A stretch of DNA of 64,000 nt from Mesaphorura yosii (lineage: Eukaryota; Arthropoda; Collembola; Poduromorpha; Tullbergiidae), in NCBI GenBank assembly GCA_009869945.1, contig WIXG01000002.1, forward strand, positions 620,001-684,000, in the 5' to 3' direction. Under the pieces are notes generated by a model, which saw only the letters and a list, made by a program, of their open reading frames with translations, searched no databases and had not been told where the DNA came from. Below are positions 1 to 64,000 of this stretch, in pieces (the stretch's first letter is position 1; each line of letters starts with the position of its first letter). The position numbers and the translations under genes were made by a program.

Positions 1-3000
1 AACAGCAGCAGAAGATTGTCGGAATCCCGTGCGTGGCAGCCGCGTCGCGATACACGGCACCAGTCCACATCGATGTGGGTGGAAAAATTTATACGTCTTC
101 GTTGGAGACGCTGACAAAGTAAGTTTGCAGTTTGTATTCTTAGCTGGGCCTTCGTTTTCTGAGTTTTTCCAGATAGATGCTTAAGGCTGTAAAATTCGCG
201 AGATTCCTAACACGCAAAATATTTATTGATAAAATCAATTTGAGAAGGAATGCGAAGAATTCGGGACAAAGAGGCTTCACCCACCCATTATTGTTCAATA
301 AATCGCTTCCATGTATCATGTAACTCACAAATCAACTTGTTGATCAGTGCAAGCATTGCAAAGGTCGTTGGAAATCGCGATCATTACTAATTTGTGGGCA
401 CAGAAGCCATTAAAAGTGACTTCATTAGCCACGGCGGTATTGGCAGTAAAAATTTCACTTACGCTACGTGCCTTGGCAAGTGCGCATCTTAAACGTGAAT
501 CAATTGATTGCTCAAGGCTAGGATAAAAGAAAGGCAAAGGCGAGAGAAGAAAGAAGAAAGACGTCTGCGGCAGGCACTGAAAGCGTCGGCGAACGCGGAG
601 GTTGGGCGATGACTGCGGGTTATGACGATGTTTTACGGTTTAAGAGCCCAATTTCCTCTGCGTATAAATTTTAATAGTATTTTTACGCTTTGTAAAGTGG
701 TTACTTATTACTTTATTTCATTATAATTGATCACTTGAGGCTGGACTGGTTTGACTTGCACCTTGCACAGCCTTTGAAGTTGCTGTCGCTGCACCTTTCT
801 TCCTACTCGTCTTGTCTTGCTGTTGTGAGTTTTATTTCTTAATAATAAAGTCAGCCAACGCCAATTCACACTCATGTAAACATGAATACATTGTTCAAAA
901 TTTTATGAAGGCTGTGCGCGGCTTCAGTTCAGATTTGTAACGATTTGTGAAAGATGCGACGGCGGCGGTCGGTGGTGTTACATTTTAATGACTTCACGCA
1001 TGCACACGATCTTTAAGCAATTACTATGAGATTACATGAGAGGAAAGCCAACAAAGCTTTGGTGAGTGTGAATTCGAAACATAAGGCACAATTGCCGATG
1101 TTCAGTGTGCAGTGAAATGCATAATGTAGATTGGAGATGGAGATTGCGCCGAAGGTGCACACCAACACAATATAATACAGGCTCATTTCCTTCTGTGCTA
1201 TGCTAAGTTTCGTTCGCATCCGTTACAATGACAAGAATGACCTCCGGCTTCTGTTTTTTGTCATTTCTGGGCTGCGAGATAAGAAAATCTAAATTTCCTT
1301 CCATCTGCCCCACGGACAATTGACGACGATAAGAATTTAAAGTACCAGTTTCTTGCTCAGGGCGAATGCGAAGAAGTTTGTAGTCTGGTATTATGTTCGT
1401 TGTTTAGCTACAGGCTGGACGCGCGATTGCACGAGAACCACACATACAGCTTGTAGAGACGACTAAAATTGACCACGTTTTATTAAGTGTTCGGTCCGAA
1501 ACAATAAAATGACAACAATTTACAAATTAAGAGACAGAGCATTCCAATGTGCACGGCATTGTTATACTGTTATGATGCCGGGGAAAGGCACGATGGAATG
1601 AAAGGTGTTAATGAGGCACTCACGCGTGAAATTTATGCTCCTCTTTTGACAGAAAGCGCTACCGGATTTAACAAGGCGAGAAAGAACCAGAGCAAAGCGA
1701 AGGTTCAGGCGTTTTGAGTTCAGTCTTAATGTCTTAATCCTTTGTTTCAGATTTCCCGAGTCACGCTTGGCGAAGATGTTCAATGGCAGCATCCCGATCG
1801 TGTTGGACAGTCTGAAGCAGCACTACTTCATAGATCGTGACGGCGACATGTTTCGGCACATTCTCAATTTCATGAGAAACAATAAACTCCTCATCCCGGC
1901 CAATTTCGCAGACATCGAGCTCCTGCTGGAGGAAGCACGCTTCTTCGACATTGCAGGTACAGCGAAGAAACAAAGAGAAGCAATGCAAAGATGATCTTCG
2001 GATTATTAGCAGCAGCATGGCATTTGCAACATAGCGTGCAAAAATTAGCTCAATCTGCCGAAGCAGAGCAAAGCAATATAAAGTTCATGACTCTAATTGT
2101 TGCCGAGCGTCGCACTCGGGCGGCCCAGGGCGATGAGGGGTTTAAAACTAAAAAGAGACGTCGATGAACGAGTTGGTCACTCAAGCGAGAATTCGAGAAG
2201 TCAACTGCTCGCAAACTTTTGCGGCTCTGCTCGAGCTCTGATGAAATCTCTGCGTTGAAGCATTTATTACAGGAGTAACCTGCAGCAAGAGCAAATAAAG
2301 ACGGAACGGAGCAGGCAGGGCGCAGAGAAATAAATGAAAATGTGTTTTCTACGATGCTGAGTGTCTGCGTCTTTTTTAAAACTGCCAACTACTCGACGCG
2401 ACTAGACTTGCCTTGCCACGACTAAAACTAAGCTGAGACTTCTTATCAACTGCCATCACACGGTCTGGCCTTAAAGCTACCCGCCTGGAAAGACGAGATG
2501 CCGAGATGAGACGAAAAAGTTTTCGCCGAATTTTTCTCCAGTATAAAAATTTTAACTGCACAATTGCTATTACTTTTACCTGGGTCGAGTATGATAATTC
2601 GATGCGAAGATGATGACGAGCACCGGATTGCCCAGCCAAGAGCTGGTTTGGCTAATTGCGACGATGGCGATGACGACAAGCGAAACTGCTCGAAACTCTC
2701 TGGCGTCTTGTCAGGTAGTTCATACACACCGCTGTCGTGCGTACGTAGAGTACGTAGGTGGTGGTGGTTTAAGTTTAAGATGAAAATTATTCGCCTCGAG
2801 ACCTTTTCTAAACCTCCTTTCCTTTTCTTTCTTCCTCCGTGCTCCGGTCGTCTTTCGCGCACTCACTCGCGTTGTCTCATAGCTTCTCCTCCATTCAATT
2901 GTCCCCGAGCGAAAAAACTGAGAGACTGTTTGAATGTTTGTTACGTTATTAAATGCCTCCTGTCGGCGTCGACCGACTCGGCTCCGCTCACAGTGCTCGT

Positions 3001-6104: not shown

Positions 6105-6912
6105 TTAAACCTGCTGGCAAATGCACACGAAGTCGGCAGCGCTCGAGTCCTCCGCTCTTTTGCTTCGAGTGCACTCGCAATTCAGTGCCCGGCTCGAATT
6201 GTCAAGCAGGAGTCCGTCGTACACATTGTTGACCGTGAAAATGCAATTGGTCGAGACCTCGTCGTCTTCCTCCTCGCTCTCCTCGTACTCGTAGCCATGA
6301 TGTGGACGCGGAGGATGATGGTGCTTGTGAAAATGGTGCAAGTACGGTGGCAACGGCGGCGGCGGGCCATGGAAGTATCGTTTGAATGGAAGACTCCGGA
6401 ATGTGGCGCAGTTTGCTGAGCAGCTGCACTTTGATTTCCTGCTCGACCCGCCGACGATCGCGCAGGTACACCGCGGTCTTGAGTGCTCCTTCGATGACTC
6501 GTTGATCCAGCACCGACTCCCACACGAATTGCAGTCGTAGAACCATTCTTCACTGCTGCTCAGCAGATCGCTTTCTGTCCAATTCTGTTTCGGCCAACAT
6601 GACAACTCACACCAGCACTCCGTCGCGTTTGTGGCGTTGGTCGGCCGCGCGGTGGTGGTCGATGAAAGTCCTTTCAGGACGCAGACAATTGGACGAACGT
6701 CGGCGGTGAAGAAGTCGCAGTACTCTGCAGTTAAAATGACAGGTCGTTAGAGACATACGAGCAATAACAAACGAATCGGATCCCAACACTCGACTTGACT
6801 CACCTTCCAGGGAAAATGCGCTAATCACGATGTTCCAGTGACACAGCATGGCAGAGCAGGAGACAAGAATTCCAACCCAACCAAAATTCCAGGAAGAAAC
6901 TGAATTAGTCAT
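6105..6912 (-). CDS. Secreted Cys- and His-rich protein of unknown function
   Basis: The model has two exons, 6912-6804 and 6724-6105 (GT-AG, phase 1), giving 242 residues. Exon 1 is a signal peptide (MTNSVSSWNFGW... to about residue 33). The mature part begins with EEYCDFFTADVR, has paired cysteines (CWCELSC, CNSCGSRC, CTC, CSCSANC, CEC, CIC), several N-glycosylation sequons (NAT, NWT, NES, NSS), a proline/histidine run (HHFHKHHHPPRPHH) and a short acidic block (EESEEEDDE). I recognise no family. Histidine and acidic clusters could bind metal, but that is inference. Two other minus-strand frames are also open over 6200-6546, and a good donor (GTGAGT) lies near 6614, so the true 3' part may differ. 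Confidence 0.5.
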
Positions 6913-8194
6913 CCTTCAAAGCACGTAGATTTGCGAGCTGAAGCAGAAATCGACTGTTGTGAAAATGGTTGCGGCTTTCCAAAATTCTAAAGCAGGTCAT
7001 CTCGCACACGCTTAATTTTCCGTCGCGTCATTCGATTTTTGGAAATTGAAATGCGACAATGCGTGTGTTCAATAGCCCCATAACTGGACCTCGTCACGAA
7101 TAATGGGAATCAGTTTAAGGTCTTTACGCTTCACATCTGTACCATATGAGAATAGGTTCGTCGTTTTAATGAGAATCTACATAACTCCATCATTCTGTTC
7201 AGCATCTGCGCTTTCAATTGACAATTGGCAACAATCGCAGTTTCGCAGCAAGCGACTTTCTCTTTTTAATGATGGAACCATCAACAAGTTCCACTCTCAA
7301 TTCTCCGATGCGATGCATGCGGCTGGGAGCTGACAACATCAGACATGCAAAATGCAAATCCAAAGTTCGATTTTAGAAGAGCTAAACTACACGAATCTGC
7401 CCATTATATTCACGTAGCCTCACGTAAAATGAATGTCAATCAATACTGCATGAACATAAGATAAGATACGAGTTGACTGACTGACGCTATTGCTTGCAAT
7501 TGCTGCATTAGGTTTTCAAGTGTTTACCTAAAAAAAAGAACAAGGTGACATAAGCATGTAGAGCCTCCAATTAAATTGAGCCCAACAGGTAGAATGGTAG
7601 AAGTGACAGTGGCATCGCAGGTGGTGGAGCTAATTAACTGCAAGTGACATAAATGCTTGCGATGACGCATAGTCAACTCAAGTAGCGGTCGCCCTCTTTT
7701 TCACTGCATTCGAACTTGGTCGGTGGTGTTATGCTGAGCTGGCTCCACTGCACTGGCTTCGTCCACTTGGTGCGGTGGTGGTAGGTTGGGGTACAGCCAT
7801 GGAGTAAGCAAGTTAGCAGAAACGAAATTATAGTACACGTACGGAAAGGGTTGAGTTGAAGGTTGTTGTTTTCGTGCTAAGAACGTTCGTTTATGCTTGA
7901 AAGTATGAATCACGCGTCCCATCACATGACGATCCCCAGCTCGCTACTCACCATGCTGGGCGGTTTTCAATGCACTGCATTGAATGGGGTCTTGGGACCA
8001 AGTCACACGGCACGCAACTGAAATTCGTATACAAGAATTGCATCATCCACTTTCTCGCTCTCCTCCCGCAGTTCTTCCATTCAGCCATATGCATGCATCA
8101 AAGTAACAAGGAGAATTTAACCACTGCTCGTTTAACCCAATTTAATCACGGTTTTACTTAATTTTTTGAACGGTGAACAATAACCGAACGAAAA
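6913..8194. other. Divergent intergenic region upstream of the secreted-protein gene and ATF4
   Basis: It presumably contains both promoters. A 74-codon minus-strand open frame (7701-7925) has no recognisable features. No TATA box or other site can be assigned with confidence. Confidence 0.35.
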
Positions 8195-8203
8195 ATGGAG
8201 TAG
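8195..8203 (+). promoter_or_regulatory. ATF4 uORF1 (Met-Glu-stop)
   Basis: ATG GAG TAG forms a minimal upstream ORF with purine at -3 and G at +4. It lies 96 nt before the uORF2 start codon, with no other ATG between. ATF4 mRNAs of vertebrates and insects begin with a very short uORF that lets ribosomes resume scanning. The assignment assumes that the transcript starts upstream of this point. Confidence 0.7.
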
Positions 8204-8299
8204 TCCAGCGGTCAGCAAGCGGAATTTTTCTTCCTCTACCTCCACCAGCCAACAAACCTCCACGCACTCTCGAGTGCCCAGTACAACTTTGAATTCAAC

Positions 8300-9913
8300 A
8301 TGGCGTAAGTTACTTTTAACTAGTTGTAACTTGTAGATGTCTATCGTGATGTTATGTATGGATCATGAGAATCATGACTCTCGTCTTGATGCCTCGATGT
8401 GTAGAAGCACTGAGTTGCTTAGGACCTTGGTTTGACCTTTGAACTAATAGCTCCCTACTCCAGAATGCACAAAAGTTAACTCTATGTCATGCCTGATGCC
8501 ATGATTATGAGCGGCACTGTAAATTTTTAAAGGACTTGGGTGGCTTGGGTTGACAGGTGTTAACAGCAAGAGCTATCCTTTAGGGGCGATGTGAACGCAG
8601 GATAGGGCAGAACAGAGGGAGAGAGAAGGTGCCCTTCAAAACCTCAGGGGAGGTCAACGTGGGGCAAATCGAGAGAGTGAAGGGCAGCTGTACTTTTTGT
8701 CAACTTTGAAAGATTTCACATGGTCATTCGCCATGCTTCAGTGGTATGACCAGAAGGAGGTCATAATTCGTGAGCTTGCATTTTCTGTGATGCCCTCATA
8801 TTGTGTTTAAAGCGTTGGAATTCCAGATTATGAGATAATCTGAAATGAAGGGTTCTATAGCAATTACAGTGATGTGCAATATGCAACCGCTTAACAATAA
8901 TATTGAATTGAATATTGAAACCGATAAATAACATGGCTAACGCTAAGGAAAGGAAACCCAACCCCCAAATTAAATTCCAAAGAACGCATATTGGTGTTTA
9001 TCTTCTCTTCACACAGAAAGAACAGGCTGCAGAAGCTAATTATAAGATGTATTCTCAGTGACGAACTTTGCCCTTGTCATGCGTTACTGGTTACTGTTTG
9101 CTGATGTGTTTAAGAAATCTTGCCCGAAACGCGGCATGCTTTTCTTTCGCAATGGAATATTGTGGACGAAAGCCTAGCCAATCAAATTTTTGAATGGGCT
9201 GATAAGTGATCATCATGAGGAAAGATGACCAGAGTGTAGGCACATCTGGCTTTTGGCTTCTTATAACGTTACAAATATCGCAGGATATAAACATACTACT
9301 ACAAAATACAACGAAGCATTTACTAATCGGATATACCTTCAAAGTTCGAAGAAGAGAATGTACGAAATTGTGGCATATTTAAAATGACGAGGGGTCGGAA
9401 CGGTCAACTGGGCAGAAGACCCTCCCACCATCTTTGTGATCGTAGTCGACTTCAAGGAAGATAAGAAAGAAGGGATCGCAATTGAAGTACTCAGTCTACA
9501 GTCTCACTTAAACCACCTAGTTTGTCCATTTCCAAGCAAAACATTTCCCAGAGCAAACTTCTCACCTTTCCTGTCGGACATCTTTAAAAATTGATTGTAT
9601 TAGTAGTAGAAGAGTATGGATCAGTATGGGGAGAGTTCAGAGATTGAGGTTAAAATTCTACGTAACTTAACAATACGAGGTTCTAAAATGGGCTCTTTAT
9701 ATTTGCAGGTTTTTACAAACAAATATCGAGCTGCAAGCTCTAATTATCAACAACGTGAAATCCTTTGACGAACCAAGCCTAATTAACCAAGACAGCATTA
9801 TTATCGCTGGAAACCATATTGACTTGCGAGAAGAATCAATATTCAGGCAACAGCAAATCAGCCATGGAGTCGTTCATGTCAACGACTTCTTGGCAGACCT
9901 CGTCGTCTGCTAA
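8300..9913 (+). promoter_or_regulatory. ATF4 uORF2, overlapping the main start codon out of frame
   Basis: The ATG at 8300 is followed after five bases by a GTAAGT donor (8305). The frame resumes at 9709 and ends with TAA at 9911-9913, giving 69 codons. It overlaps the ATF4 coding sequence (ATG 9864) by 50 nt in another frame, and no other ATG lies between. In other animals such an inhibitory uORF blocks ATF4 translation unless eIF2 is phosphorylated, when scanning ribosomes bypass it. The uORF spans a 1.4-kb intron, so the arrangement exists only in the spliced mRNA. Confidence 0.75.
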
Positions 9914-11559
9914 GTACTACAACTGCATCTCTCCAAACTCACCAGGATCACCTGTTGCGTCCCCATCGAGCCCAACTTTGTACCAGCACGTCGGGCAAGA
10001 TGACGGACTCCTTCCACAAAATGGAGGGCTTGCCTCTCCCATTTTCAAGAACGGCAACAATATCGCCACAAATCGTTCTCAAGTTGCAACAACGCTTCTC
10101 AAAAACTTAGAAGAATACAGTCTGGAGCAATTTCTAACTCAGAATGGTAAGCCCAGCCCCTAGCTGATCAGCTCGAAGTAGCTTATTGTTTCCCATCGAA
10201 AGCTCATGATGATTAATTGTTCCGAATTTGAGTAGTAAAATACAATGAAATTAAGCCAAAAGGATGCTGAAACAAAATTCCAAATACAGCTTTGATTTCA
10301 AATTGAATAGCCAAAATGCAAGCATATTTTCTATAAAGAACTTTTCCTGTCTGTTATTCGCAGAGTTTGGAACTGACTCTACTGACTGGAATGAGGAGAA
10401 TGCAAACTTGGAGCTCTTCAACGAACTTTCTGCGCTTGAATTTACTCCACCAGCGGCACAACATTTGGAGAATGAAAACATCGCTTCTGTCTCTGTCGGC
10501 CAGGGCCCGGACGGAGATACCGAAATTGTGATCCGGAGTGAGAATGAGTCGTTCGATGAACTTTCTGCCGAGTTCCAAAATATTCTAGACTCCTTACCCA
10601 GAACAGCAACAGCATGGGGAGAGGAGCTGATTGACTTCACTGACCTAATCTACAGTAGTCCTGCTGAGGCTCAAGAATACCAACCAATAGCAACGGTAGA
10701 AATTACATCGATTGCGCTTAATGATGGCAGTGACAACACTGGACAGGCGCAGGAGATCATTGACGTGTCCGACTCGAGTACCGACGAAAGCGAGAGTGAA
10801 GACGACATCTTTATGGAAACTGATGTGACAAGAGCTGCATCGGAATTGGGCACTTCATACCAATACTTGTCTGCTGAAGAAACATCATCCATGCTGTCCA
10901 TGCCAATGAGTGAAGAGGATGATCACAACTTACTGGTTGGCGAGAAAATGTTGGATGCGCTTCTGGTTGGAAATCTGGACGAGGCAGTAACATTTTTGCC
11001 AGGCATTGTCCAGCCCTTTGGCTGTGAGGATGTTAAGCCGAAAGTTAGCAAGCCAACCAAGGCTCCAAGGTGAGAAATTGTAACTTGACCTTGGCGAAGT
11101 AGCCTGCCAAGCCAAAGAATATCATGATGAGCCAAATTTATTCTTCTTTCCCCGACTGACTTCAAACATTGATGGATTCTTATTATAACTGAGAACTTAA
11201 CGTAAAAATAATTGGCTCCGTCTTACAAAAGCGTATCAACGTATTCAAGTTAGTAATTAAAAACGTCCCTTCTTTTCAGAAAACCGGCAAACCAGCGCCG
11301 TGGAAAGAAGGCCAAGACTCCCAAGATCGAGAAGATTATCCGGAAGAAAGAACAGAACAAAACTGCTGCATTGCGCTACCGAATGAAGAAAAAAATGGAG
11401 GTGGAAGTCACTCTTGAGCGTGAGGCCGAACTCCAAGCTGAGCACGACGGCTTGATGAAGCAAAGGGACGAAGTGCACAAAGAAATTCAGATGGTGAAGC
11501 AGCTTTTGCGAGCAGTATTTTCCAACCGAAAGAGCAAGTCGCAAGCTGGGAAGTATTGA
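9864..11559 (+). CDS. ATF4: ATF4/cryptocephal-type bZIP transcription factor
   Basis: Coding exons are 9864-10146, 10364-11069 and 11280-11559 (422 residues), and the splice phases agree. The start ATG sits in a good context (GCCATGG). The last exon encodes the bZIP: the basic region KKEQNKTAALRYRMKKK, the near-identical ATF4 signature, at about residues 352-368, followed by a leucine-zipper helix. The middle is acidic and serine-rich. SDSSTDESESEDD near the centre resembles the phosphodegron region of ATF4 but lacks the exact DSGxxS. ATF4 drives amino-acid biosynthesis, redox and ER-stress genes in the integrated stress response. Regulation by the two upstream ORFs is visible in the leader. 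The gene is convergent with UFD1. Confidence 0.93.
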
Positions 11560-12042
11560 ACAAGATAATTGGCATTGGCAAGCGGGCAGTCTTAATGTAA
11601 CAGCAGCGTGAAATTGTACCGTTCTACTTCTAAATTATAGATTGTAATCTAGAATCTTACACTTGCAATTGCAAATGACTTGGGTTAGTGAACTCGGGGA
11701 GTGGGACAGCATAATTTTGGTGAATTTGTAGGTTTGTTTTGTAGTACTTTGCAAACAAACTAGTTAAGGTACTGTTTGAATTTCATGACGTACATCTTGT
11801 ACCGATTTTCTTGTTCAAGCAACAATTTTTAATTACGAAATATCTCTAGTTCGCTTAATTTTTCATACTTTATTTCACTACTCACTTCGATTTTAGCAAG
11901 AAAAAGAAATGAAAGGTAGTTTGACGATAACCAGAATCGGCACGAATTGTGGAATTATTTTACGTCTACTGTCTAACGGATCTATTGTAGAATCTGCGCT
12001 CTCGCGCCTAGAAACTCTTTACCGGTCTTTTGGTTATTCTGA

Positions 12043-12048
12043 AATAAA
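12043..12048 (+). terminator. Polyadenylation signal AATAAA, ATF4
   Basis: The AATAAA lies about 480 nt after the ATF4 stop codon, just before the opposing UFD1 signal at 12092-12101. Confidence 0.6.
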
Positions 12049-12091
12049 TAGTGCATGACTTTACTTTAGAACCAAACCATAATAAGTCACT

Positions 12092-12101
12092 TTTATTTAT
12101 T
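12092..12101 (-). terminator. Two overlapping polyadenylation signals, UFD1
   Basis: AATAAATAAA reads on the minus strand about 100 nt after the UFD1 stop codon. Confidence 0.6.
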
Positions 12102-12195
12102 CGATTTGCGAGTCTTGTGCGTCGAAAAGGAATGCTATCAATTTAATGTCGAGTTTCGGGAAATCGAACCCGTGCATATTTGAACGAAGTTGTGG

Positions 12196-13318
12196 TCAGT
12201 CTTCATGCTGCACAGCTTTGGGACGGAAAAAGTCAATTTTCCCAAATTTCCAGTCATGATCTGGTTGGCCTCGTTGTCCGTTCGCTCTTGGAGTGATTGC
12301 TGCTTGGCTGGCAGTAAATACCTTTCCATCAAGTCTGAACACAGGTTAGGAGATTAGGTAACAATTTGTTATGTCCTGGTAATTTGCGTTGTTCATAGCT
12401 GTTGCAACTTTAAATTACAAACCTGCAACCGGCGCCTGCGAAAGGCACAAATCCGTTGAGCTCTGTTGATGCTTCGGTCCCAGAATCTGACCGCACATCT
12501 TGCGACTCGGTCTTCTTTTGTTTCTTCGGTTCGACGTATCCCACAGGCGGTGCAAAATCAACCTACAATTTAGATTTTAAGTTAGACCAGCATTCGTCAT
12601 TTAACTTAGATGCGACTGACTTCTGGTGGCGACCTACCTTCATATCACATTCAATGCAACAAACAGCAGGTTGTGGCTGTGTTTCTAAAACTCGTAGCTC
12701 GTACAAATGATCGTTGTAAGTTATTCCGATTACATCCCCCGTAGTCAATGTGGCAAAATAGCGAAGAGAGTTCTCCAGCATAGCTTTTGGATTTGAAATT
12801 TCCAGAAAATCGACAGATTGAGGTTCGAACTTTGCGTAAGTGGCGGTGCGAAGAGTGGCACTGGTAAATCGAACGAAGTCACCTTCTTGTAGCCCAAGAT
12901 TCTTCATCATCTGGACAAGCATGGTATTAATTCAAGCGAACGGTCAATGTATTCGGTCTGTCGTCAATCTTACCCATCTCGGAGCATAGCATCGACCCTC
13001 GGGAGCGATGAATTCTAAAACCCCACCGTACGAATCGCGTCCATTTTGCACATTGGTAACATGAAACAGCATTGGGTACGTAATATTGAGTCGTGTCAAC
13101 TGGCTCAGAATCGATGGTGGAAGAATAACTGGGTTGTCAAAAATCGTAAATAAATATCGCAATGTTCCATGGCAAACATGTACCTCAGTTACAGCATTTT
13201 ACTTACATTTGCCTCCGCTGTCGAGATTAGCGGCCGTGTCTGGTCCATTTGCTCCTGACAGCGACGAATAACATCGGAGTAAAGCGTCCAGGGGTTCCGA
13301 GTGGCCATGTGGGAACAT
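12196..13318 (-). CDS. UFD1: UFD1, ubiquitin recognition factor of the p97/Cdc48 complex
   Basis: Five exons (13318-13207, 13128-12974, 12910-12638, 12562-12423, 12334-12196) give 272 residues with consistent phases. Family blocks include [84 protein letters not shown] and [18 protein letters not shown]; the C-terminal block GAGCRLDGK is followed by [12 protein letters not shown]1 with NPL4 recruits p97 to ubiquitylated proteins, for example in ER-associated degradation. The N-terminus is short and diverged: [13 protein letters not shown] replaces the usual phenylalanine-rich start, and the first domain segment is poorly conserved. Length is a little below the human protein (307). Confidence 0.93.
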
Positions 13319-21500: not shown

Positions 21501-23864
21501 ATTAATATTCTTGGCACGCAGAGCTGGCCGGACAATCTTTCCCGTAAATCATTTGGAAGCTTCTGCTTCGTTGTCGTGTATGCGATTCCAGGATTTATCG
21601 TCGTCCTTGGTAAGAATTCGAATCAAGCTTATTCTGTATACACACCCTCGGCTTAAAATTGAGCGTTGTTTCCTTTTACAACCAGAGCAACTTGCACAAT
21701 TTAAGAATTTAGAGAGCTCATTCTCATTCATGCTTTCTTTATTGTCTCTTGCAGCTTACTCACTCATGGGCTTAAGGCTTTGTTCGCGAAATCTCCTGCC
21801 CGAATACCAGCTCAGCCATGGCGGTGGGAGTCCAACTGGATTCAGCCTAACTCAGGCTGACTCCTCCGGCAACTCTGCATGGCAGGTGAGTAAAGGAGTC
21901 TCGAGCCTGTAGCAGCCTTTCGCTGCGTCAACCTACTCGTACGACGACGTTGACCTCGAAACGTGACAGATTGAATTGCACTATAAATAGACCAGACACT
22001 ATCGCCCAACAGAATCAGCAAGCTCCTCAAATTTCGCGAGTAGGGGCAGATCAGTTACATTTCGCCTACGTGAGCGAGAATGTCCTCTGCATTTGTGCCT
22101 GAGATTGCGGTGACAGATGGGATAGGCTTCCAGTAATAATTAAATTCTGACAAGCCAATCTCGCAGACTCGCACATGAAACCATCCTTTAATTAGAGATG
22201 TCAAAGGCAGACAGATGAAATTGAATAAGTGGAAATTCGACTGCGATAACGGAATTTCATGTTTTGAAATGGTGGTATGGTGTTTAGTATGCTTATTCGA
22301 TTGCTTTGCCTTGAATTTCAGGTGTCATCAGCTGGTGGGCGACTAATTCGTGAGAGAAGACGAGTTGCGAAAATTCTATTAGTGCTAGGTAAAGTCTCTC
22401 GTGGAAAGGCAAATTAAGGCATAATTTGATTATGACATTGGTCTCACCCTTTATCTTTTGCAGCCTTGGTGTTTGCTTTCTGCTGGTTCCCATACAGCGT
22501 GCTGAGCCTGATCCTCGACCTCAAATCTAAATCTCAGGCCGAAATTGATCCTGATTTTGCTAAAGTGACCGCAGAAATTGATAACGATGACATTGTCGAA
22601 ATTGCGTCCTTTCTGCTCCCGTTTGCTCTTCTGCTTGGACACGTTAATTCAGCTGTAAATCCTCTTTTATGCTGCCTGCTCAGCAAGAACTTTCGACGCA
22701 GTGTCGCTGAGATGATTCGCCATCCGACAAGAGCGGCAAGAAGCAGACCGCATTGCAAGGTAAGCTACGAAACATTCCATTGCACTTACTTTCCAGGAGA
22801 CGAGGCCGCGGCGTGGCCTTGGCGATTTACTGCTTCTCAGAAACTTAGACAGCACAAAGTGCAGCATTTTCAAGATAAACATCGCATTGAGAAGTTCAGG
22901 AAAGGTTTCTATCTCTTGAGACGGTACAGGAAGAAAAATTAGGCCATCAATCTAAGTGACAATGATACCACTTCCTACATTAATTTCTAATTTCTTCAAT
23001 CTCTTTCGTATCACTCGTTTCTGTTAAATTGAAAAAGTTCTGATCTGCAAACATCAACTTTTTCCATTACAAAATCTCAACATGTTGGTTTCCTTGTCTG
23101 ACTGGCAGCACGCTTCTCGGAATTCATGGATTGCATTGCAGAAAATTTTGCGCTTTGAGCAAGTTGCAGAGAAAATATCTCATCATCACAACTTCGAAGC
23201 GCTAGTAATTGTACGGGTTATATAATTAGTGTGTGTCTGCGTTTTTTTTTAGATCCGCATGAACTTTCGGAGGGACACGCCGGACTCTCGTGACAAGTAC
23301 AACAGCAGGGACCAAGTGAACAGCAACCGCCCAAGAAATCACCACGCGCCAGAACCACCGCCGCCACAACCTTCCGAATCTCACGACTCGCACAGCGGCG
23401 GCCCAAGCAACCTGAGCAATCGTGTGGCAAACGATATTGCTAAAGTTCCTGCATGCGACCCGAACATTCCGCTCACTGTGCTTGTTGCTTGCGTTCCGTA
23501 CATCAATCAGGAGTCGTCCATCGTGTCCTCCCCAACTTCAAGCGGGTACGGATCGCTCCCTCATTCTGCCGACACGCTCGCAATCGCACACTTCAGGAAA
23601 GACAGTGGACACGTCAGCGTTCAATCCACTTCTTGCCAGCAGCAGCGACAGTTTGAATCAATCAGCTCTCCCGTGCACCATCGCGGAATATTTGGGTTTG
23701 GATTCACAGCTCGGTCATTCTGTGTGAACCACAAGAAGTCAGCAGAGTGCAAAAGAGTCCAAGTTCCGTCCACGATTTGCGAGGAATCCGACACTAGTCA
23801 GAAGTTGAAAGGACGTCACGTCATTTTCCAAGACACCTGCTTCGGGGAAAGGAATTCGTATTAG
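15582..23864 (+). CDS. Class A (rhodopsin family) neuropeptide-type GPCR
   Basis: Nine exons: 15582-15796, 18841-18983, 20860-20972, 21237-21347, 21522-21609, 21755-21885, 22322-22388, 22464-22759, 23253-23864 (591 residues; phases agree). The N-terminus has sequons (NST, NLT). TM1 is ISTYIPLFLIALLSNTLIIL; TM2 is SVTNYFLVNLSVADLLVTL; C-K before TM3; ECL2 has FCIESWPD; TM6 has FAFCWFPYS; TM7 has GHVNSAVNPLLCCLL. The overall pattern is closest to the orexin/allatotropin/cholecystokinin-like peptide receptors, but I cannot name the ligand. The TM3 motif is ERC and the TM7 motif NPLLC. The 200-residue tail is Ser/Pro-rich. Exon 3 ends at a GC donor (AAG|GCAAGT). Introns 1 and 2 are 3.0 and 1.9 kb and hold no other gene that I can see. 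Confidence 0.88.
20261..20606. mobile_element. MITE-like element with terminal inverted repeats, TA duplication
   Basis: A 346-bp element starts CAGTATATAAAAAAATGGAT and ends with the inverse of nearly the same sequence. The arms match over about 40 bp, continuing through CATACCCCTC and an A/T run. It is flanked by TA on both sides (20259-20260, 20607-20608), as expected for a Tc1/mariner-superfamily insertion. It has no transposase frame, so it is non-autonomous. It lies in intron 2 of the GPCR gene. Confidence 0.85.
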
Positions 23865-44509: not shown

Positions 44510-48198
<3,689 letters not shown>

Positions 48199-55546: not shown

Positions 55547-55680
55547 GCTTCAGCCTGGCGAAATAAATAGATACAAACAATAAACTACTGTTTGTACGCC
55601 ACGGCGCACCAGCACCGGACCCGGATTGGGCTCCCGGGCACCGGGCTGGTCTAAACGGATATTGAAATTTGAAACTTACT

Positions 55681-57258: not shown

Positions 57259-60038
57259 ATGGGGAAAAATGGTACTAGTAATTCCGAATTGAGCGTCGGA
57301 ATACACTACAATTATGTCAAGGACATTAGAGAGAAACTCGACCTAGTCGTTGAGAAGAAGTAAGTTTTTTCAATTTCAAAAAGAAAGGTCTAACATGCAT
57401 TAGATTCAAATGCACGGTTTAATTACAGTATCAACTACGTATGCTCAAGATTGGTTCCCGAGAGCTCGTTTAATCACAGTGTTGAAACGGGGACTCCTGT
57501 TCCCTGTGATGAGTTTTGGCAGGATACCCAACTAACCACGAAAGGTACAGGTTTTTCGAAGCTATTTGTTTATTGTCCAGGATAAGTTTGATAAGTAATT
57601 AATTATTATTATGATCATTCGATGGTTTTAGAATGGAGTTTAGGATTGGTTGGTGTGCTGCCAAATCCACCAGAATTGGAGAGCGTTGATTTACTTATTG
57701 TGAAACGTGCTACCAAGGCTCTGTACAAGCAACTTGAATATTCTCATCATCTTAGCCTATCAGCGATAATGTTTGAATTGACATATCCTTCCAATCACCT
57801 GGCTCAGATTATTCAGGGAAGGTTGCACCAAGCTGCTCAACATTTCACAGTAAGTGCTAAGATTTTGAAAAAGAACTGATATAAATAAGGAATGACTTTG
57901 ATGTCTGCTCTATCGTTTCAGTTCTGGGTCAAAGTAAGATACGGAGCATCTGGCCCTGATGGCGACATGGATGAGGACACCGATTATGCGTGGAAATGGT
58001 AGGTCTTACGCTATATGCTGCTAGTTAACTTTCATGAATCAAATGAATCCCTTATCGAAGGTTTAGTGGGATCTTTTTTCACGCTCCAGTTTCAACACTT
58101 TCCGTAAACTCTGTGGCGCTGAGAGGAAGCTCATGGTTGTGTTGCAGATTGGAGCCGATATCCCAGATGACGAGTCTAAGCTTGATCGTTGGAAGGGCGA
58201 AATGGTCACTGCATTGAGCCTTCCTCTAAGTAAGGAGTTGATGTTGATGTTTTTCTGCTCAAGATGCAAAGAGCCATTGTGTCACGTGAAACTTTCGCAG
58301 GCATCTTTCTAACAAACGACAAAGGGTTTCCTGTCCTATCGAAACTCCATCAAGCAGTGGTCCGGAAATTTTTAGCTCTTGGAGCCCACATGATTCTAGA
58401 AGCGGATATCGATGTTGATGAAAGTACTTTAGAATTTTATGCACAGTATTTGAGGCATATTCACTTGGCTCAAATAGTAAGAACGAGTTGTATTTACGTA
58501 AGTTAAGTTTTATTTAATCTGAACTACATTCGACAATTTCTCCTTCAGGAGTCTTTTAGAGATCCGGCAAGTGAGGAGAGATATTACATGCCGGGCTGGG
58601 AGAATTATTTACAATGTCCACTGCAACCATGTAAGCAAACAGCAGCAAACTTCATGGTAGTATTAACCATTCTTTGATTAAATACAAGGAAATAACTTAC
58701 GCTACAAAATTCCAGTGATGGACAATTTGGAGTATCAAACGTATGCTACATTTGAAGTTGATCCAGTTAAATATAAACTATATCGCGACGCTTTGGCGTT
58801 GGCCTTTCGGAAGAAGCTTCCTTCAGCAGAAAAACGAGCCGTCACTGAATTGTAAAGTATTAAATAATGTAACTCTCTGGAGAGTGGCAGCTCACAATCT
58901 TTTTGACTCTTAGGGTCGTAGTTGTTGCTGGCGCAGGACGCGGGCCGTTGGTGAATATGACCTTCGAGGCTGCTAGCTTAGAAGGAGCAAAAGTTCGAAT
59001 CTACGCGTTGGAGAAGAATTGCAGTGCAGAAACAAGGCTGAACGACTTAAACAAGACAAAGTGGGGAGAGAAAGTTACCATTGTTATTGCCGATATGAGG
59101 TATTGGAGTCCACCAGAGCAGGCCGATATCATCGTCTCAGAACTACTGGGATCGTTTGGTGACAATGAACTTTCACCCGAGTGCCTGGATGGGGCTCAAC
59201 GCTTTCTTAAAGGCGAGTCAAGTCAATATTACAGGAATGACCATAGAATGCACGTCCAGGCTACTAAATAGGTGTTTATGGTATCTGTCAGATGATGGAA
59301 TTATAATTCCGGAAGAGTACACGTCGTTCCTTGCTCCAATAATGTCCCACACATTGCACGCAGAAGCAAACAAGTATCGTGAGATTGAAAAGCCTTACCA
59401 CTCGCCATACGAAACGAGCTACGTGTGTCTGATGACAAGGAAGTACGACATTGCTCAGCCGAAGGAGTTATTCAAGTTCAGTCATCCGGCTAAAAAGCTC
59501 GGTAAGCGGCAGAGTTTCAGAATTGGCGAGATGGTGATAGTCAAATAGATGTAAGCTCGCGCTACTTCCTCAGCAGGTTCAACTCCTGACGAAAATTGGA
59601 CAAACGATAGGTACAAAACTTTGGAATTTGCTGTGAAGCAGGATTGCGACTGTCATGGATTTGTTGGGTACTTCGACTCAGTTTTGATGTCTGGTACTGA
59701 TGCAAAAATAACCATGAGCATTCACCCCGACACGTACTCTGGAAAGATGCAAAGTTGGTTCCCGTTGTACATTCCAATCAAGGTAAGTTTAATATAAGGC
59801 CAATATGAATGGATGATTGATTGGAGCTGAGTGTACCTCATTTGTCACTTTGTCACCTGTTTACCAGGATGGTATTTCACTAAGGAAAGGTGATAAACTG
59901 GTGGTGAGTTTCTGGAGAAAAAGTACTTCCACCAAAGTCTGGTACGAATGGACAGTCGTCGCACCGCAGGCCCTGCCGGTTCATAACGTGAATGGAAGGT
60001 CCTCGTTTCTGGGACTTGATTTGGCCTCGGCAGAATAG
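57259..60038 (+). CDS. PRMT5: PRMT5, protein arginine N-methyltransferase 5
   Basis: Twelve exons: 57259-57359, 57429-57544, 57632-57849, 57922-57998, 58090-58229, 58301-58476, 58549-58630, 58716-58851, 58914-59212, 59292-59501, 59577-59782, 59868-60038 (643 residues; human 637). It makes symmetric dimethylarginine on histones and Sm proteins with MEP50. Visible: the TIM-barrel segment [15 protein letters not shown], the type II-specific phenylalanine in TYATFEVDP (F316), SAM motif [12 protein letters not shown], and the double-E loop [11 protein letters not shown] (E425, E434); the C-terminal beta-barrel has [18 protein letters not shown] and KVWYEWTV. Exon 9 ends at a GC donor (AAAG|GCGAGT). 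Exon 11 has a tandem CAGCAG acceptor (start 59574 or 59577). Confidence 0.95.
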
Positions 60039-60755: not shown

Positions 60756-63683
60756 CTACTTCTTTGGTTTATGATCCAACAGGACTTTGATGACACTCTC
60801 GTCTGCCAACGTGGATATGTCACCGAAGTTTGAGTCATCTGCTGCTATTTTTCTCAAGATTCTTCGCATTATTTTCCCCGATCTTGTCTTCGGGAGGCCC
60901 GGAGCCAGTTGGAGGACATCGGGAGTGGCGAAACCTCCGATTTTTTCCCGAACTGTAGTTAATGATAATGCTAATTAATATGATCTAGAAGAACAAAATT
61001 AAACTAAATGTATGAAAGCACTCTCACCAATCAACTTCAACTCATTAATGATTTTGTCGTTCCATTCAAAACCTTCCCTTAAAGTTACAAAGCAATAGAC
61101 TGCCTCTCCTTTTATGGCGTGATTCATGCCGACAGCTGCCGATTCTGCCACAGCTGAACAAGGAAACATAAAATATGAAGTAGTTTCAAATGAGATGAAT
61201 TGCCAATTGCCACGATTGCGATTGCTCGCTCACCTTTGTGTTCAATCAGAGCAGATTCGATTTGTGCCGTGGAAAGTAAGTGCCCCGAGACATTGAGCAT
61301 GTCGTCGACACGGCCAGTTATCCAAATATAGCCATCTTCATCTCTTCTAGCACCTGCACAAAGATTCCCACGTGAAGCAAAAGGAGTCGAGTCACACGCA
61401 GAGGTTAATTACCGTCTCCCGTGCAGTAGTAGCCCGGAAATTTTGAGAAGTACGTAGTTTCGAATCGTTCATGCGAGCCGTACACCGTCCTCATCAAGCC
61501 CGGCCAGGGTTGGCTAAAAACCAGGTATCCTTCACCAGGCCCTTCAATGACCTTTCCTTCTTCGTTTAGCAGCACAGGCACAACTCCAAAGAAAGGAAAC
61601 GTCTGCAGTACGAGAAAGTGTTCTTCGTTGACCCATTGTCAATTTTGTTCTCCGTAATTATCTTACCGCAGAACCGGGTTTGGTTCTTGTCGCAAATGGA
61701 AGCGGCGTCACAACGTGACCTCCGGTCTCGGTCTAGACACAAGTACAAATTCATACCATATTATTCATTGCAAAAATACAAAAGCAATTGGCACTGGAAG
61801 CGTGCAACAGAGTTCAATTTGCTTGGTGTCGAATCTCGTACCTGCCAGAATGTGTCAACTGAAAAAGCAAGAATTAAAGTTTTTTTTATCTTGCACAGGC
61901 GCTAAATATTAATGAATTGAATATTAATGCTGTACCGATTGGACATTTAGAATTCCCCACAATTTTGTGATACCACAACCATGCTTCGGGATTGATCGGT
62001 TCTCCAACAGTTCCAAGAACCTTCAGCGAGTCGCGATTATACCTGAAACCGAACATGATTAAATGCTTAGTCAATAAAAATGAAGCCGAAAAACGCCACA
62101 GAATCCAACGCTTACTTGAGTACTGGAGAGTCACCAAACTTCATGAGAGATCGGATTGCAGTTGGAGCAGTGTAGAATTGATTAACTTTGTATTTTTCCA
62201 CAATAGCCCAGAACCTGGAGTTGTCCGGGTAGAATGGCGTCCCTTCAAACTGTACAGGCGCAAGCAGAAGACGACATGAATATGAATGCAAAGGAAAATC
62301 TTTCCGCATGATTAGTTTAGTCATACCATGATTGAAGTGCTTCCATTCAGAAGCGGCCCGTAAAGTAAATAAGTGTGTCCTGTAATCCAGCCCACGTCGG
62401 CGGTGCACCAATAAACATCCCCAGGATGATAGTCAAAGACGTACTTGAACGTTGTCGCTGCGTAGATCATGTATCCCGCGGTTGTGTGCAAAACTCCCTT
62501 TGGCTTCCCAGTTGACCCGCTAAAACCAGCAGTGAACCAATTACAATTACAAGCACTGATTAAAGATCAGTGATCATGAGCGTGCTATGTGCAGTGGTGC
62601 AGTCACAATGAAATTTAGCTGTACCTTGTGTACAGCATGAAAAGAGGAGTTTCTGCATCAACCCACTCTGGAGGACAATCGTCACTGGCACCTTCCATCA
62701 AGTCGTGGTACCATTTGTCCTGCTCAGGATGGAACGGGACCTGCCAAGTCGAAGTCGTCAGTATCCGTCAGTACGTGATAACGGCTTCATTTCAATCAAG
62801 AGCTTACACTGAAGTCGTATTGCTTCTTCTTTGTTGGTGATTCTTCTTTATCTGCCTGGCTCTCGTGGTATTTGATAACGATGCAGTGCTCGACCTTGTG
62901 ACCTTCCTGTTCACTATGCTTCAGCGCCTGCGAGCAGTACGGAAACGCAGTGTCAGGTGAGAATACTGATTGGCCAAATCTTAACTGTCATTCGCTTACA
63001 TCGTCCGCAATTTCCTTCAAATGCAGCAATTTGTCTCCTCGCATAGCCACCGAACCAGTCACAAGAACCTTACATTTGGCGTCGGCCATTCTGCCTCCGA
63101 GTGAAGCAGCTGAGAATCCTCCAAAGACGACGGAATGCATTGCTCCAATCCGAGCACATGCCAGCATGACGACGGCGACTTCAGGAACCATTGGCATATA
63201 GACGCCCACGCGGTCGCCCTTCTGCACACCCAACGATTTAAGCACATTCGAAAATTTGCATACTTGCTTCAGCAATCCTCCGTATGTAATTGATGACGAG
63301 TCCTTCGGGTCGTTTCCCTCCCAGTAGTACGCCACGGTATCTTTCCGCCCGTGCTTCATGATATTATAATCCAAGAGATTATAGCAGATGTTCGTTTTCG
63401 CTCCTTCCATGAATTTGATGGAAATAGGTCCATTCTTGACATTGAAATTGTAGTCCAACAGTTTGCTACTCTTCGGCGGGGGCGTCTCGAAATAAAAGTT
63501 GTCCGCAATGTCTTTCCAAAACCCGTCCGGATCTTGTATCGATTTTGCATATTTGGTTTTATAATCTTCCATCGATTTGATATGAGCATCTTTTGATAAT
63601 CCAGCCGGCGGATCGAATATCTGAAAAGCAATCATTCGTTCAGTAATGTCACTGGAATTGAAACGGCTTCTTCCACTTCCCAT
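60756..63683 (-). CDS. ACSS2: Acetyl-CoA synthetase (AMP-forming)
   Basis: Twelve exons: 63683-63000, 62927-62808, 62740-62625, 62519-62327, 62249-62116, 62042-61936, 61858-61842, 61732-61667, 61602-61413, 61353-61234, 61153-61028, 60952-60756 (689 residues). It converts acetate, ATP and CoA to acetyl-CoA in cytosol and nucleus. Visible: [35 protein letters not shown] loop [16 protein letters not shown] (split between exons 3 and 4), [37 protein letters not shown] and [12 protein letters not shown] with the catalytic, acetylation-regulated lysine (K651). No mitochondrial presequence is evident. Exon 7 has only 17 nt. TTGCTTTTCAG at about residue 21 resembles an acceptor, so the first 21 residues may instead be intron, with a start further upstream. 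Confidence 0.94.
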
Positions 63684-64000
63684 CCATTAGTTCTGTCTTA
63701 AATTCGTAAACCGCTTGTTTACTTTGGTTAATGAGGAGGTTGACCTTGACACACAAGCGGCATGTACAATACAAAAAGCGGTGGTGCCTTTCACAATCGG
63801 CGAATTACGAATTGACTTTAATGGACTTTGCATGCCCATGTCAATTTTATTCATATCAAATTCTGCCTGAATTCTGAGTGACACTTTAGCTTTAACCTGA
63901 GGTCTGTCACACTTTTTTGGCTATTCGGTTCTCAAGAATTCAACATCAAGGCCAAAGCCAAACGCTTTTTCTTAAGACAAACGGCAACCTAATCAAAGCT
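63684..64000. other. Region upstream of acetyl-CoA synthetase
   Basis: Probable promoter and 5'UTR, or an upstream first exon of the synthetase gene on the minus strand. A short minus frame (63687-63884) contains no recognised motif. Confidence 0.35.

What the first reader, a model, noticed from the sequence alone, without database searches (positions are those of the whole stretch)
8195..9913. ATF4 leader has exactly two uORFs, a 2-codon uORF1 and an overlapping uORF2 split by an intron
The spliced leader from 8195 has only two ATGs before the main start: Met-Glu-stop, then 96 nt later a 69-codon ORF that overlaps the ATF4 start by 50 nt out of frame. This is the integrated-stress-response logic known from mammals and flies. 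Here the uORF2 ATG is only five bases before a 1.4-kb intron, so retention or alternative splicing of that intron would alter the switch.
Basis: partly seen in the sequence, partly recalled or inferred. Interest (0 to 1): 0.72.

Follow-up and report, generated by a model that had tools for sequence, protein, structure and literature searches.

The report
ATF4 stress switch with overlap hairpins
This is the stress-response gene ATF4 of an unidentified small-genome animal, with the usual pair of tiny upstream reading frames that hold it off until stress; the one unusual extra is a predicted pair of RNA hairpins in the stretch where the second upstream frame overlaps the gene.

Summary
The predicted 422-aa protein is ATF4: its only PDB match at E 0.001 is ATF-4. 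The genome also holds a GCN2-like kinase, a PP1c-binding (GADD34-type) exon and 5MP. 'Exactly two' depends on an unproven transcription start: weak-context ATGs lie at 8089 and 8093. The logic is known: paired ATF4 uORFs are reported in metazoa except nematodes, including a mite (PMC4176352). Intron retention would turn uORF2 into Met-Ala-stop and leave no overlapping uORF, but nothing shows that it happens. Human ATF4 has a ribosome-queuing stem-loop in the same overlap (PMC11058473). New member of a known kind, with a possible variant feature.

The parts
8195..8203 (+). uORF1, Met-Glu-stop, strong start context (A at -3, G at +4)
8300..8304 (+). uORF2 5' piece (ATGGC), last 5 nt of exon 1, strong start context
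8305..9708 (+). intron 1, GTAAGT...TTTGCAG, 1,404 nt, 37 ATGs inside
9709..9913 (+). uORF2 3' piece, TAA at 9911-9913; 69 codons in all; no second in-frame ATG
9864..10146 (+). ATF4 coding exon A (starts at main ATG; second in-frame ATG at 9876)
10364..11069 (+). ATF4 coding exon B
11280..11559 (+). ATF4 coding exon C with bZIP domain and stop; 422 aa in all
9866..9889 (+). predicted hairpin 1: 9-bp stem, loop CAUGUC holding the second in-frame ATF4 AUG (9876); -9.7 kcal/mol
   Evidence: inner pairs mostly 0.8-1.0 in four of six fold contexts, about 0.4 in one, 0.01 in one
9890..9913 (+). predicted hairpin 2: 8-bp stem (9 with the 9890-9913 pair) ending at the uORF2 stop codon; -11.5 kcal/mol
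   Evidence: pair probability 0.57-1.0 in five of six contexts, 0.02-0.41 in the whole-mRNA context
8089..8161 (+). two further ATGs (8089, 5 codons; 8093, 22 codons) in weak context; in the leader only if transcription starts upstream of them

Best explanation
The 5' leader of an animal (probably invertebrate) ATF4 gene, working as the metazoan paired-uORF switch. Ribosomes translate the 2-codon uORF1 and keep scanning. When eIF2 is active they regain initiator tRNA within the 96 nt and initiate at uORF2, which carries them past the ATF4 start. When eIF2 is phosphorylated (a GCN2-like kinase is present) they rearm late, miss the uORF2 AUG and initiate at ATF4. Shown: sequence anatomy, ATF4 identity, presence of GCN2-like, PP1c-binding and 5MP genes. 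Inferred: that the mRNA starts and splices as drawn, and the translational behaviour. A further inferred layer, less sure: two tandem hairpins in the uORF2/ATF4 overlap slow scanning and elongating ribosomes there, as human SL3 does, lowering basal output and affecting the choice between the AUGs at 9864 and 9876.
For: Exact anatomy. Only PDB match at E 0.001 is ATF-4, 1ci6, E 1.3e-6; none of the 10 other bZIP_1 hits of the genome resembles it closely (seven, best 36% over 44 aa, E 0.12; three). The leader query found one place in the genome. Kinase exon best matches GCN2 structures, E about 1e-13, on the same strand as an RWD match 2-3 kb away. PP1c_bdg exon. 5MP HEAT pieces, E 3.2e-35 and 6.5e-7; PMC4176352 reports 5MP and paired ATF4 uORFs as conserved together. 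Hairpins: lowest-energy windows of 2,031 in the predicted mRNA start at 9865-9866 (9864 ranks 4th), and the 9864 window has the most negative z (-5.0) of 204 scored; as stable are 1 of 20,000 synonymous recodings in the ATF4 frame and 70 of 20,000 in the uORF2 frame, and 24 of 42,634 window tiles (8 of 12,868 GC-matched), the tile at 9865 being among the 24; first of 121 ATG-ORF starts.
Against: No RNA data: neither start site nor junction is proven, and the 8305 donor is not clearly separated from neighbours by the matrix used. The pattern alone occurs in 1.3-1.8% of shuffles. uORF2 lacks the second in-frame strong AUG reported for all insects and a mite (PMC4176352). The GCN2 C-terminal family PF12745 matched only one exon, which I read as histidyl-tRNA synthetase, not the GCN2 locus; three further frames at that locus gave no Pfam match. 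Hairpins are single-sequence predictions without covariation; in a wider stretch z is weaker (-2.4 for 9840-9990, 4 of 200 shuffles; -3.1 for 9850-9930, 11 of 2,000), and each hairpin is lost in one longer-context fold, hairpin 1 also weakened in another. uORF2 peptide has no Pfam match.
Confidence: 0.82

Rival explanations
1. The real mRNA starts or splices differently, so uORF2 is absent from most transcripts (for example a start inside intron 1 after 9688, or a donor at 8211 that skips the uORF2 ATG). ATF4 is then controlled by transcription or by other uORFs.
For: A transcript starting at 9700 has no uORF and one starting at 9650 has a single non-overlapping one; donor scores at 8173, 8211 and 8744 are within 0.15 bit of 8305; no start site is known.
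Against: 8305 is the only one of these with a full GTAAGT; the two-uORF pattern would be a 1-2% coincidence in just the gene known for it.
Confidence: 0.1
2. Intron 1 is a regulated element: its retention or alternative splicing is used to change the inhibitory uORF. (Not exclusive of the best explanation.)
For: Retention gives ATG GCG TAA and no overlapping uORF; a splice to 9847 would keep a 23-codon overlapping uORF2. Infection-induced retention of 5' introns overlapping uORFs is reported in Drosophila (PMC6966827, passages).
Against: Retention adds 37 further ATGs, which should block ATF4 (inference); any phase-2 GTAA donor makes a stop; only two imperfect inverted repeats and no direct repeats were found in 7900-10000. 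Searches (18 of 18 and 15 of 32 papers listed) showed no title or abstract start on ATF4 intron retention; one search was badly worded and found none.
Confidence: 0.07
3. The overlap hairpins are chance, a by-product of a dual-coding stretch, and do nothing. (Concerns only the added layer.)
For: One sequence, no covariation; 24 of 42,634 window tiles reach the same energy (the tile at 9865 included) and uORF2-frame recoding reaches it in 70 of 20,000; context-sensitive.
Against: The boundaries match the overlap almost to the base, it is the energy minimum of the predicted mRNA, and human ATF4 has a functional stem-loop in the same overlap (PMC11058473).
Confidence: 0.4

Closest known systems
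Metazoan ATF4 paired-uORF leader: mammals, Tribolium, other insects, a mite, Aplysia, Hydra (PMC4176352, passages and one section read); Drosophila crc-RA (PMC4433282, passages read)
   Same: Short uORF1 (2 or 3 codons in PMC4176352, 2 here) and a long uORF2 overlapping the ATF4 start in another frame; uORF1-uORF2 distance near the mammalian one (the mammalian figure is recalled).
   Different: uORF2 here has no second in-frame AUG, reported as conserved in all insects and a mite. Overlap 50 nt here, 125 nt in Drosophila. uORF2 starts 5 nt before an intron; intron positions in other species were not in the text read. The weak-context ATGs at 8089 and 8093 may match the weak upstream uORF described there.
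Human ATF4 SL3 stem-loop in the uORF2/ATF4 overlap (PMC11058473, passages read)
   Same: Stable predicted structure inside the overlap; a later in-frame ATF4 AUG sits in a hairpin loop.
   Different: Two tandem hairpins (-9.7, -11.5) instead of one (-15.4); they begin at the main AUG and end at the uORF2 stop; the AUG in the loop is codon 5, not codon 17; no in-frame CUG 20 nt upstream of either hairpin. SL3 is described as conserved among vertebrates; the words invertebrate, insect, Drosophila and metazoa do not occur in that text. Homology is not claimed.
Sindbis subgenomic mRNA downstream stable hairpin (PMC5850377, passages read)
   Same: Hairpin 2 begins at +27 or +28 of the first ATF4 AUG, the spacing given there, and 14-15 nt after the A of the AUG at 9876.
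   Different: A much smaller hairpin; that review argues against spacing alone as the mechanism. A resemblance of distance only.

Membership tests
ATF4 (CREB/ATF bZIP) protein | ATF4-type basic region and zipper | tested here: met
   Only PDB match at E 0.001 is 1ci6 ATF-4, E 1.3e-6; bZIP_1 E 6e-6, 26.7 bits, slightly under the 27.6 cut-off for the whole protein, 31.7 bits and over it in the genome scan.
ATF4 paired-uORF leader | Short uORF1 closed before uORF2 | tested here: met
   8195-8203, 2 codons.
ATF4 paired-uORF leader | Long uORF2 overlapping the ATF4 start in another frame | tested here: met
   69 codons, 50-nt overlap in the predicted splice form.
ATF4 paired-uORF leader | Both uORFs are in the mature mRNA | not testable with these tools
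   No RNA data; acceptor strong, donor best locally but not clearly separated.
ATF4 paired-uORF leader | Opposite effects of uORF1 and uORF2 on output under eIF2 phosphorylation | not testable with these tools
   Needs reporters; a GCN2-like kinase is present.
Arthropod-type ATF4 leader (PMC4176352) | Second in-frame strong AUG within uORF2 | tested here: not met
   No in-frame ATG inside uORF2. The organism was not identified, so it may simply not be an arthropod.
SL3-type overlap stem-loop | Stable hairpin inside the uORF2/ATF4 overlap | tested here: met
   Predicted only: -22.4 kcal/mol over 50 nt, z about -5; context-sensitive.
SL3-type overlap stem-loop | In-frame near-cognate CUG 20 nt upstream | tested here: not met
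   ATF4-frame codons; the nearest in-frame CTG is at 9807.
SL3-type overlap stem-loop | Conserved pairing among relatives | not testable with these tools
   No relative's leader was available; membership in a family with human SL3 is not claimed.

The most novel reading that the evidence does not exclude
An invertebrate ATF4 mRNA has its own structured barrier in the uORF2/ATF4 overlap: two tandem hairpins running from the main AUG to the uORF2 stop, with the second in-frame AUG in the first loop and the second hairpin 14-15 nt past it and at +27/+28 from the main AUG. It would act like vertebrate SL3 (queuing) and also steer initiation to the AUG at 9876 under stress, so that overlap structure is a general, perhaps repeatedly evolved, part of the ATF4 switch.
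Probability: 0.3. Interest if true: 0.6.

Novelty: new member of a known kind. Interest (0 to 1): 0.38.

Why it matters
It adds one more animal to the ATF4 paired-uORF rule and, more usefully, offers a place where the newer human idea of a stem-loop in the overlap can be tested outside vertebrates. If such hairpins recur in other invertebrates, the two-uORF model would need a structural third part more widely. The splice detail also means that a gene model which misses exon 1 would miss the switch.

Tried and rejected
Regulated intron 1: only two imperfect inverted repeats and no direct repeats in 7900-10000; no Rfam match at gathering score and no tRNA in the window. Functional uORF2 peptide: no Pfam match; codon-position GC before the overlap is 0.46/0.25/0.45 against 0.53/0.39/0.51 in the ATF4 CDS, too short to decide. 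ATF4 paralog with its own leader: none seen. A bacterial-type promoter scan is irrelevant to an animal gene. GCN2 by its C-terminal family: the one match I read as histidyl-tRNA synthetase. Naming the organism: eight requests for 18S rRNA did not complete and no COX1 was found; the taxon stays unknown. Literature on an intron inside ATF4 uORF2: searches (18 of 18 listed; 10 of 11; 9 of 9) showed no title or abstract start on it, and the passages read gave none. Overlap structure in invertebrate ATF4: the rows listed by searches (15 of 36; 6 of 6; 10 of 271) showed none. Figures and supplements are not held, so neither set of searches proves that it is unpublished.

Full report
What was checked. 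I read 6500-12500 and rebuilt the transcript by script. Every coordinate in the finding holds: uORF1 8195-8203 reads Met-Glu-stop; 96 nt follow; uORF2 starts at 8300, is cut after 5 nt by a 1,404-nt GT-AG intron (8305-9708), and ends at 9913 after 69 codons; the main ATG is at 9864; the overlap is 50 nt in another frame. The full reading frame needs two more introns (10147-10363 and 11070-11279) and ends at 11559, 422 aa.

Identity. At E 0.001 the protein has one PDB match, the ATF-4 zipper 1ci6 (E 1.3e-6, residues 348-408). It has a bZIP_1 match (E 6e-6, 26.7 bits against a cut-off of 27.6 for the whole protein; 31.7 bits and over the cut-off in the genome scan). Of the 10 other bZIP_1 matches in the genome, none is a close relative: seven were compared (best 36% over 44 residues, E 0.12; two gave no row) and three (two chance-level rows, one none). 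A query of 8100-8304 found one place in the genome.

Pathway. On contig C9 an RWD match and, 2-3 kb away on the same strand, a kinase exon whose best PDB matches are GCN2 structures (E about 1e-13; eIF2-alpha kinases 3 and 1 follow) look like a GCN2 gene. A further frame there I read as its HisRS-like part, but Pfam gave no match for it or for two other frames. Against this, the GCN2 C-terminal family PF12745 matched only one exon elsewhere, which I read as histidyl-tRNA synthetase. A PP1c_bdg exon, the family of GADD34/CReP (naming recalled), is present, as are two pieces of 5MP. These are parts of the integrated stress response. PERK was not sought.

How unusual is the pattern? With the exons fixed and assumed starts at 8095, 8150, 8180 or 8195, the strict two-uORF pattern appears in 1.3-1.8% of 5,000 dinucleotide shuffles each, and a loose version in 20-22%. 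So the case rests on finding the pattern in ATF4, with good contexts at all three AUGs, more than on its rarity. 'Exactly two' needs a transcription start between about 8094 and 8195. ATGs at 8089 and 8093, both in weak context, would be added by a longer transcript. PMC4176352 describes a weak-context uORF upstream of uORF1 in such mRNAs and says that it must be bypassed or that transcription must start after it (section read).

Splice sites. Its intron side is a perfect GTAAGT. A retained intron gives ATG GCG TAA, 39 ATGs before the main start, and no uORF that overlaps ATF4; a splice to 9847 would leave a 23-codon overlapping uORF2; a transcript starting at 9700 would have no uORF. Infection-induced retention of 5' introns that overlap uORFs is reported in Drosophila; in the passages seen ATF4 is mentioned there only as an mRNA whose uORFs promote translation (PMC6966827). 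Here retention would swap one barrier for many, and nothing in the sequence suggests regulation.

I folded 9840-9990 because I recalled a stem-loop in the human uORF2/ATF4 overlap; z was -2.4, with 4 of 200 shuffles as stable. The overlap alone (9864-9913) folds as two tandem hairpins, 9866-9889 and 9890-9913, -22.4 kcal/mol together, z about -5, 0 of 2,000 shuffles as stable; hairpin 1 alone is matched by 10 of 2,000 and hairpin 2 alone by 1 of 2,000; 9850-9930 gives z -3.1, 11 of 2,000. In the predicted mRNA (8150 to 12060, both ends assumed) the lowest of 2,031 50-nt windows start at 9865-9866, the 9864 window ranks fourth, and of 204 windows given a z-score it is the most negative. Controls: 24 of 42,634 tiles of the window on both strands, and 8 of 12,868 GC-matched tiles, are as stable (the tile at 9865 is among the 24); 1 of 20,000 synonymous recodings in the ATF4 frame and 70 of 20,000 in the uORF2 frame; the ATF4 start ranks first of 121 ATG-started ORFs of 60 aa or more in the window, most of which are probably not genes. 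Against it: one sequence, no covariation. In six contexts (one, five) hairpin 1 is well formed in four, about 0.4 in one and 0.01 in one; hairpin 2 is 0.57-1.0 in five and 0.02-0.41 in the whole mRNA.

Mechanism. Core (anatomy shown, function inferred): delayed reinitiation after uORF1, with uORF2 as the trap; in Drosophila, reporters with either uORF AUG changed behave as this predicts (PMC4433282, passages read). Extra (inferred): hairpins in the overlap delay ribosomes. In human ATF4 the stem-loop SL3 (-15.4 kcal/mol) lies in the same overlap, has an in-frame AUG in its loop, and unpairing it raises output about 1.3-1.8-fold (PMC11058473, passages read). Here the second in-frame AUG (9876) is likewise in a loop; the in-frame CUG 20 nt upstream of human SL3 has no counterpart. 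Hairpin 2 starts 14-15 nt after the A of that AUG, close to the distance given for a hairpin that helps initiation, and at +27 or +28 from the first AUG, the distance of the Sindbis hairpin used when eIF2 is inactive (PMC5850377, passages read; that review argues against a mechanical reading). These spacings are leads. The uORF2 stop is 233 nt upstream of the next exon junction, so uORF2 translation could expose the mRNA to decay (inference from general rules).

Known or new. PMC4176352 reports paired ATF4 uORFs as conserved in all metazoa except nematodes, so the finding is a new member of a known kind. Differences from what I read: no second in-frame AUG in uORF2 (against insects and a mite), the tandem hairpins, and the intron 5 nt into uORF2, whose position in other species I could not learn. 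No relative's leader could be compared. The organism was not identified; 93 Mb is far below any vertebrate genome (recalled), and 5MP speaks against a nematode by the rule in PMC4176352.

Verdict. Observation correct; interpretation largely correct but already known; the intron idea unproven; the overlap hairpins are the part worth a test.

Noticed in passing
9864-9913: Two tandem predicted hairpins fill the uORF2/ATF4 overlap, with an in-frame AUG in the first loop.
   Followed up: yes
8089-8161: Two weak-context ATGs upstream of uORF1 that resemble the weak upstream uORF described in PMC4176352.
   Followed up: partly
9783-9863: The ATF4 frame is open for 27 codons upstream of the main ATG, with in-frame CTG at 9807 and TTG at 9819; a near-cognate N-terminal extension is possible.
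   Followed up: no
12566-12931 (-): UFD1 exon (UFD1_N2, E 1.2e-30) downstream on the opposite strand.
   Followed up: no
1650-1991 (+), 22436-22936 (+), 46525-46905 (-), 59099-59545 (+), 62991-63686 (-): Neighbouring gene pieces: BTB_2 domain, rhodopsin-type receptor (below cut-off), cathepsin propeptide, PRMT5 C-terminal domain, acetyl-CoA synthetase.
   Followed up: no
50-nt tiles starting 55572-55609: Most stable 50-nt folds of the window, down to -30.1 kcal/mol on the minus strand and -26.8 on the plus strand; unexplained.
   Followed up: no
10901-10950: Another structured stretch inside the ATF4 coding region, z about -4.2.
   Followed up: no
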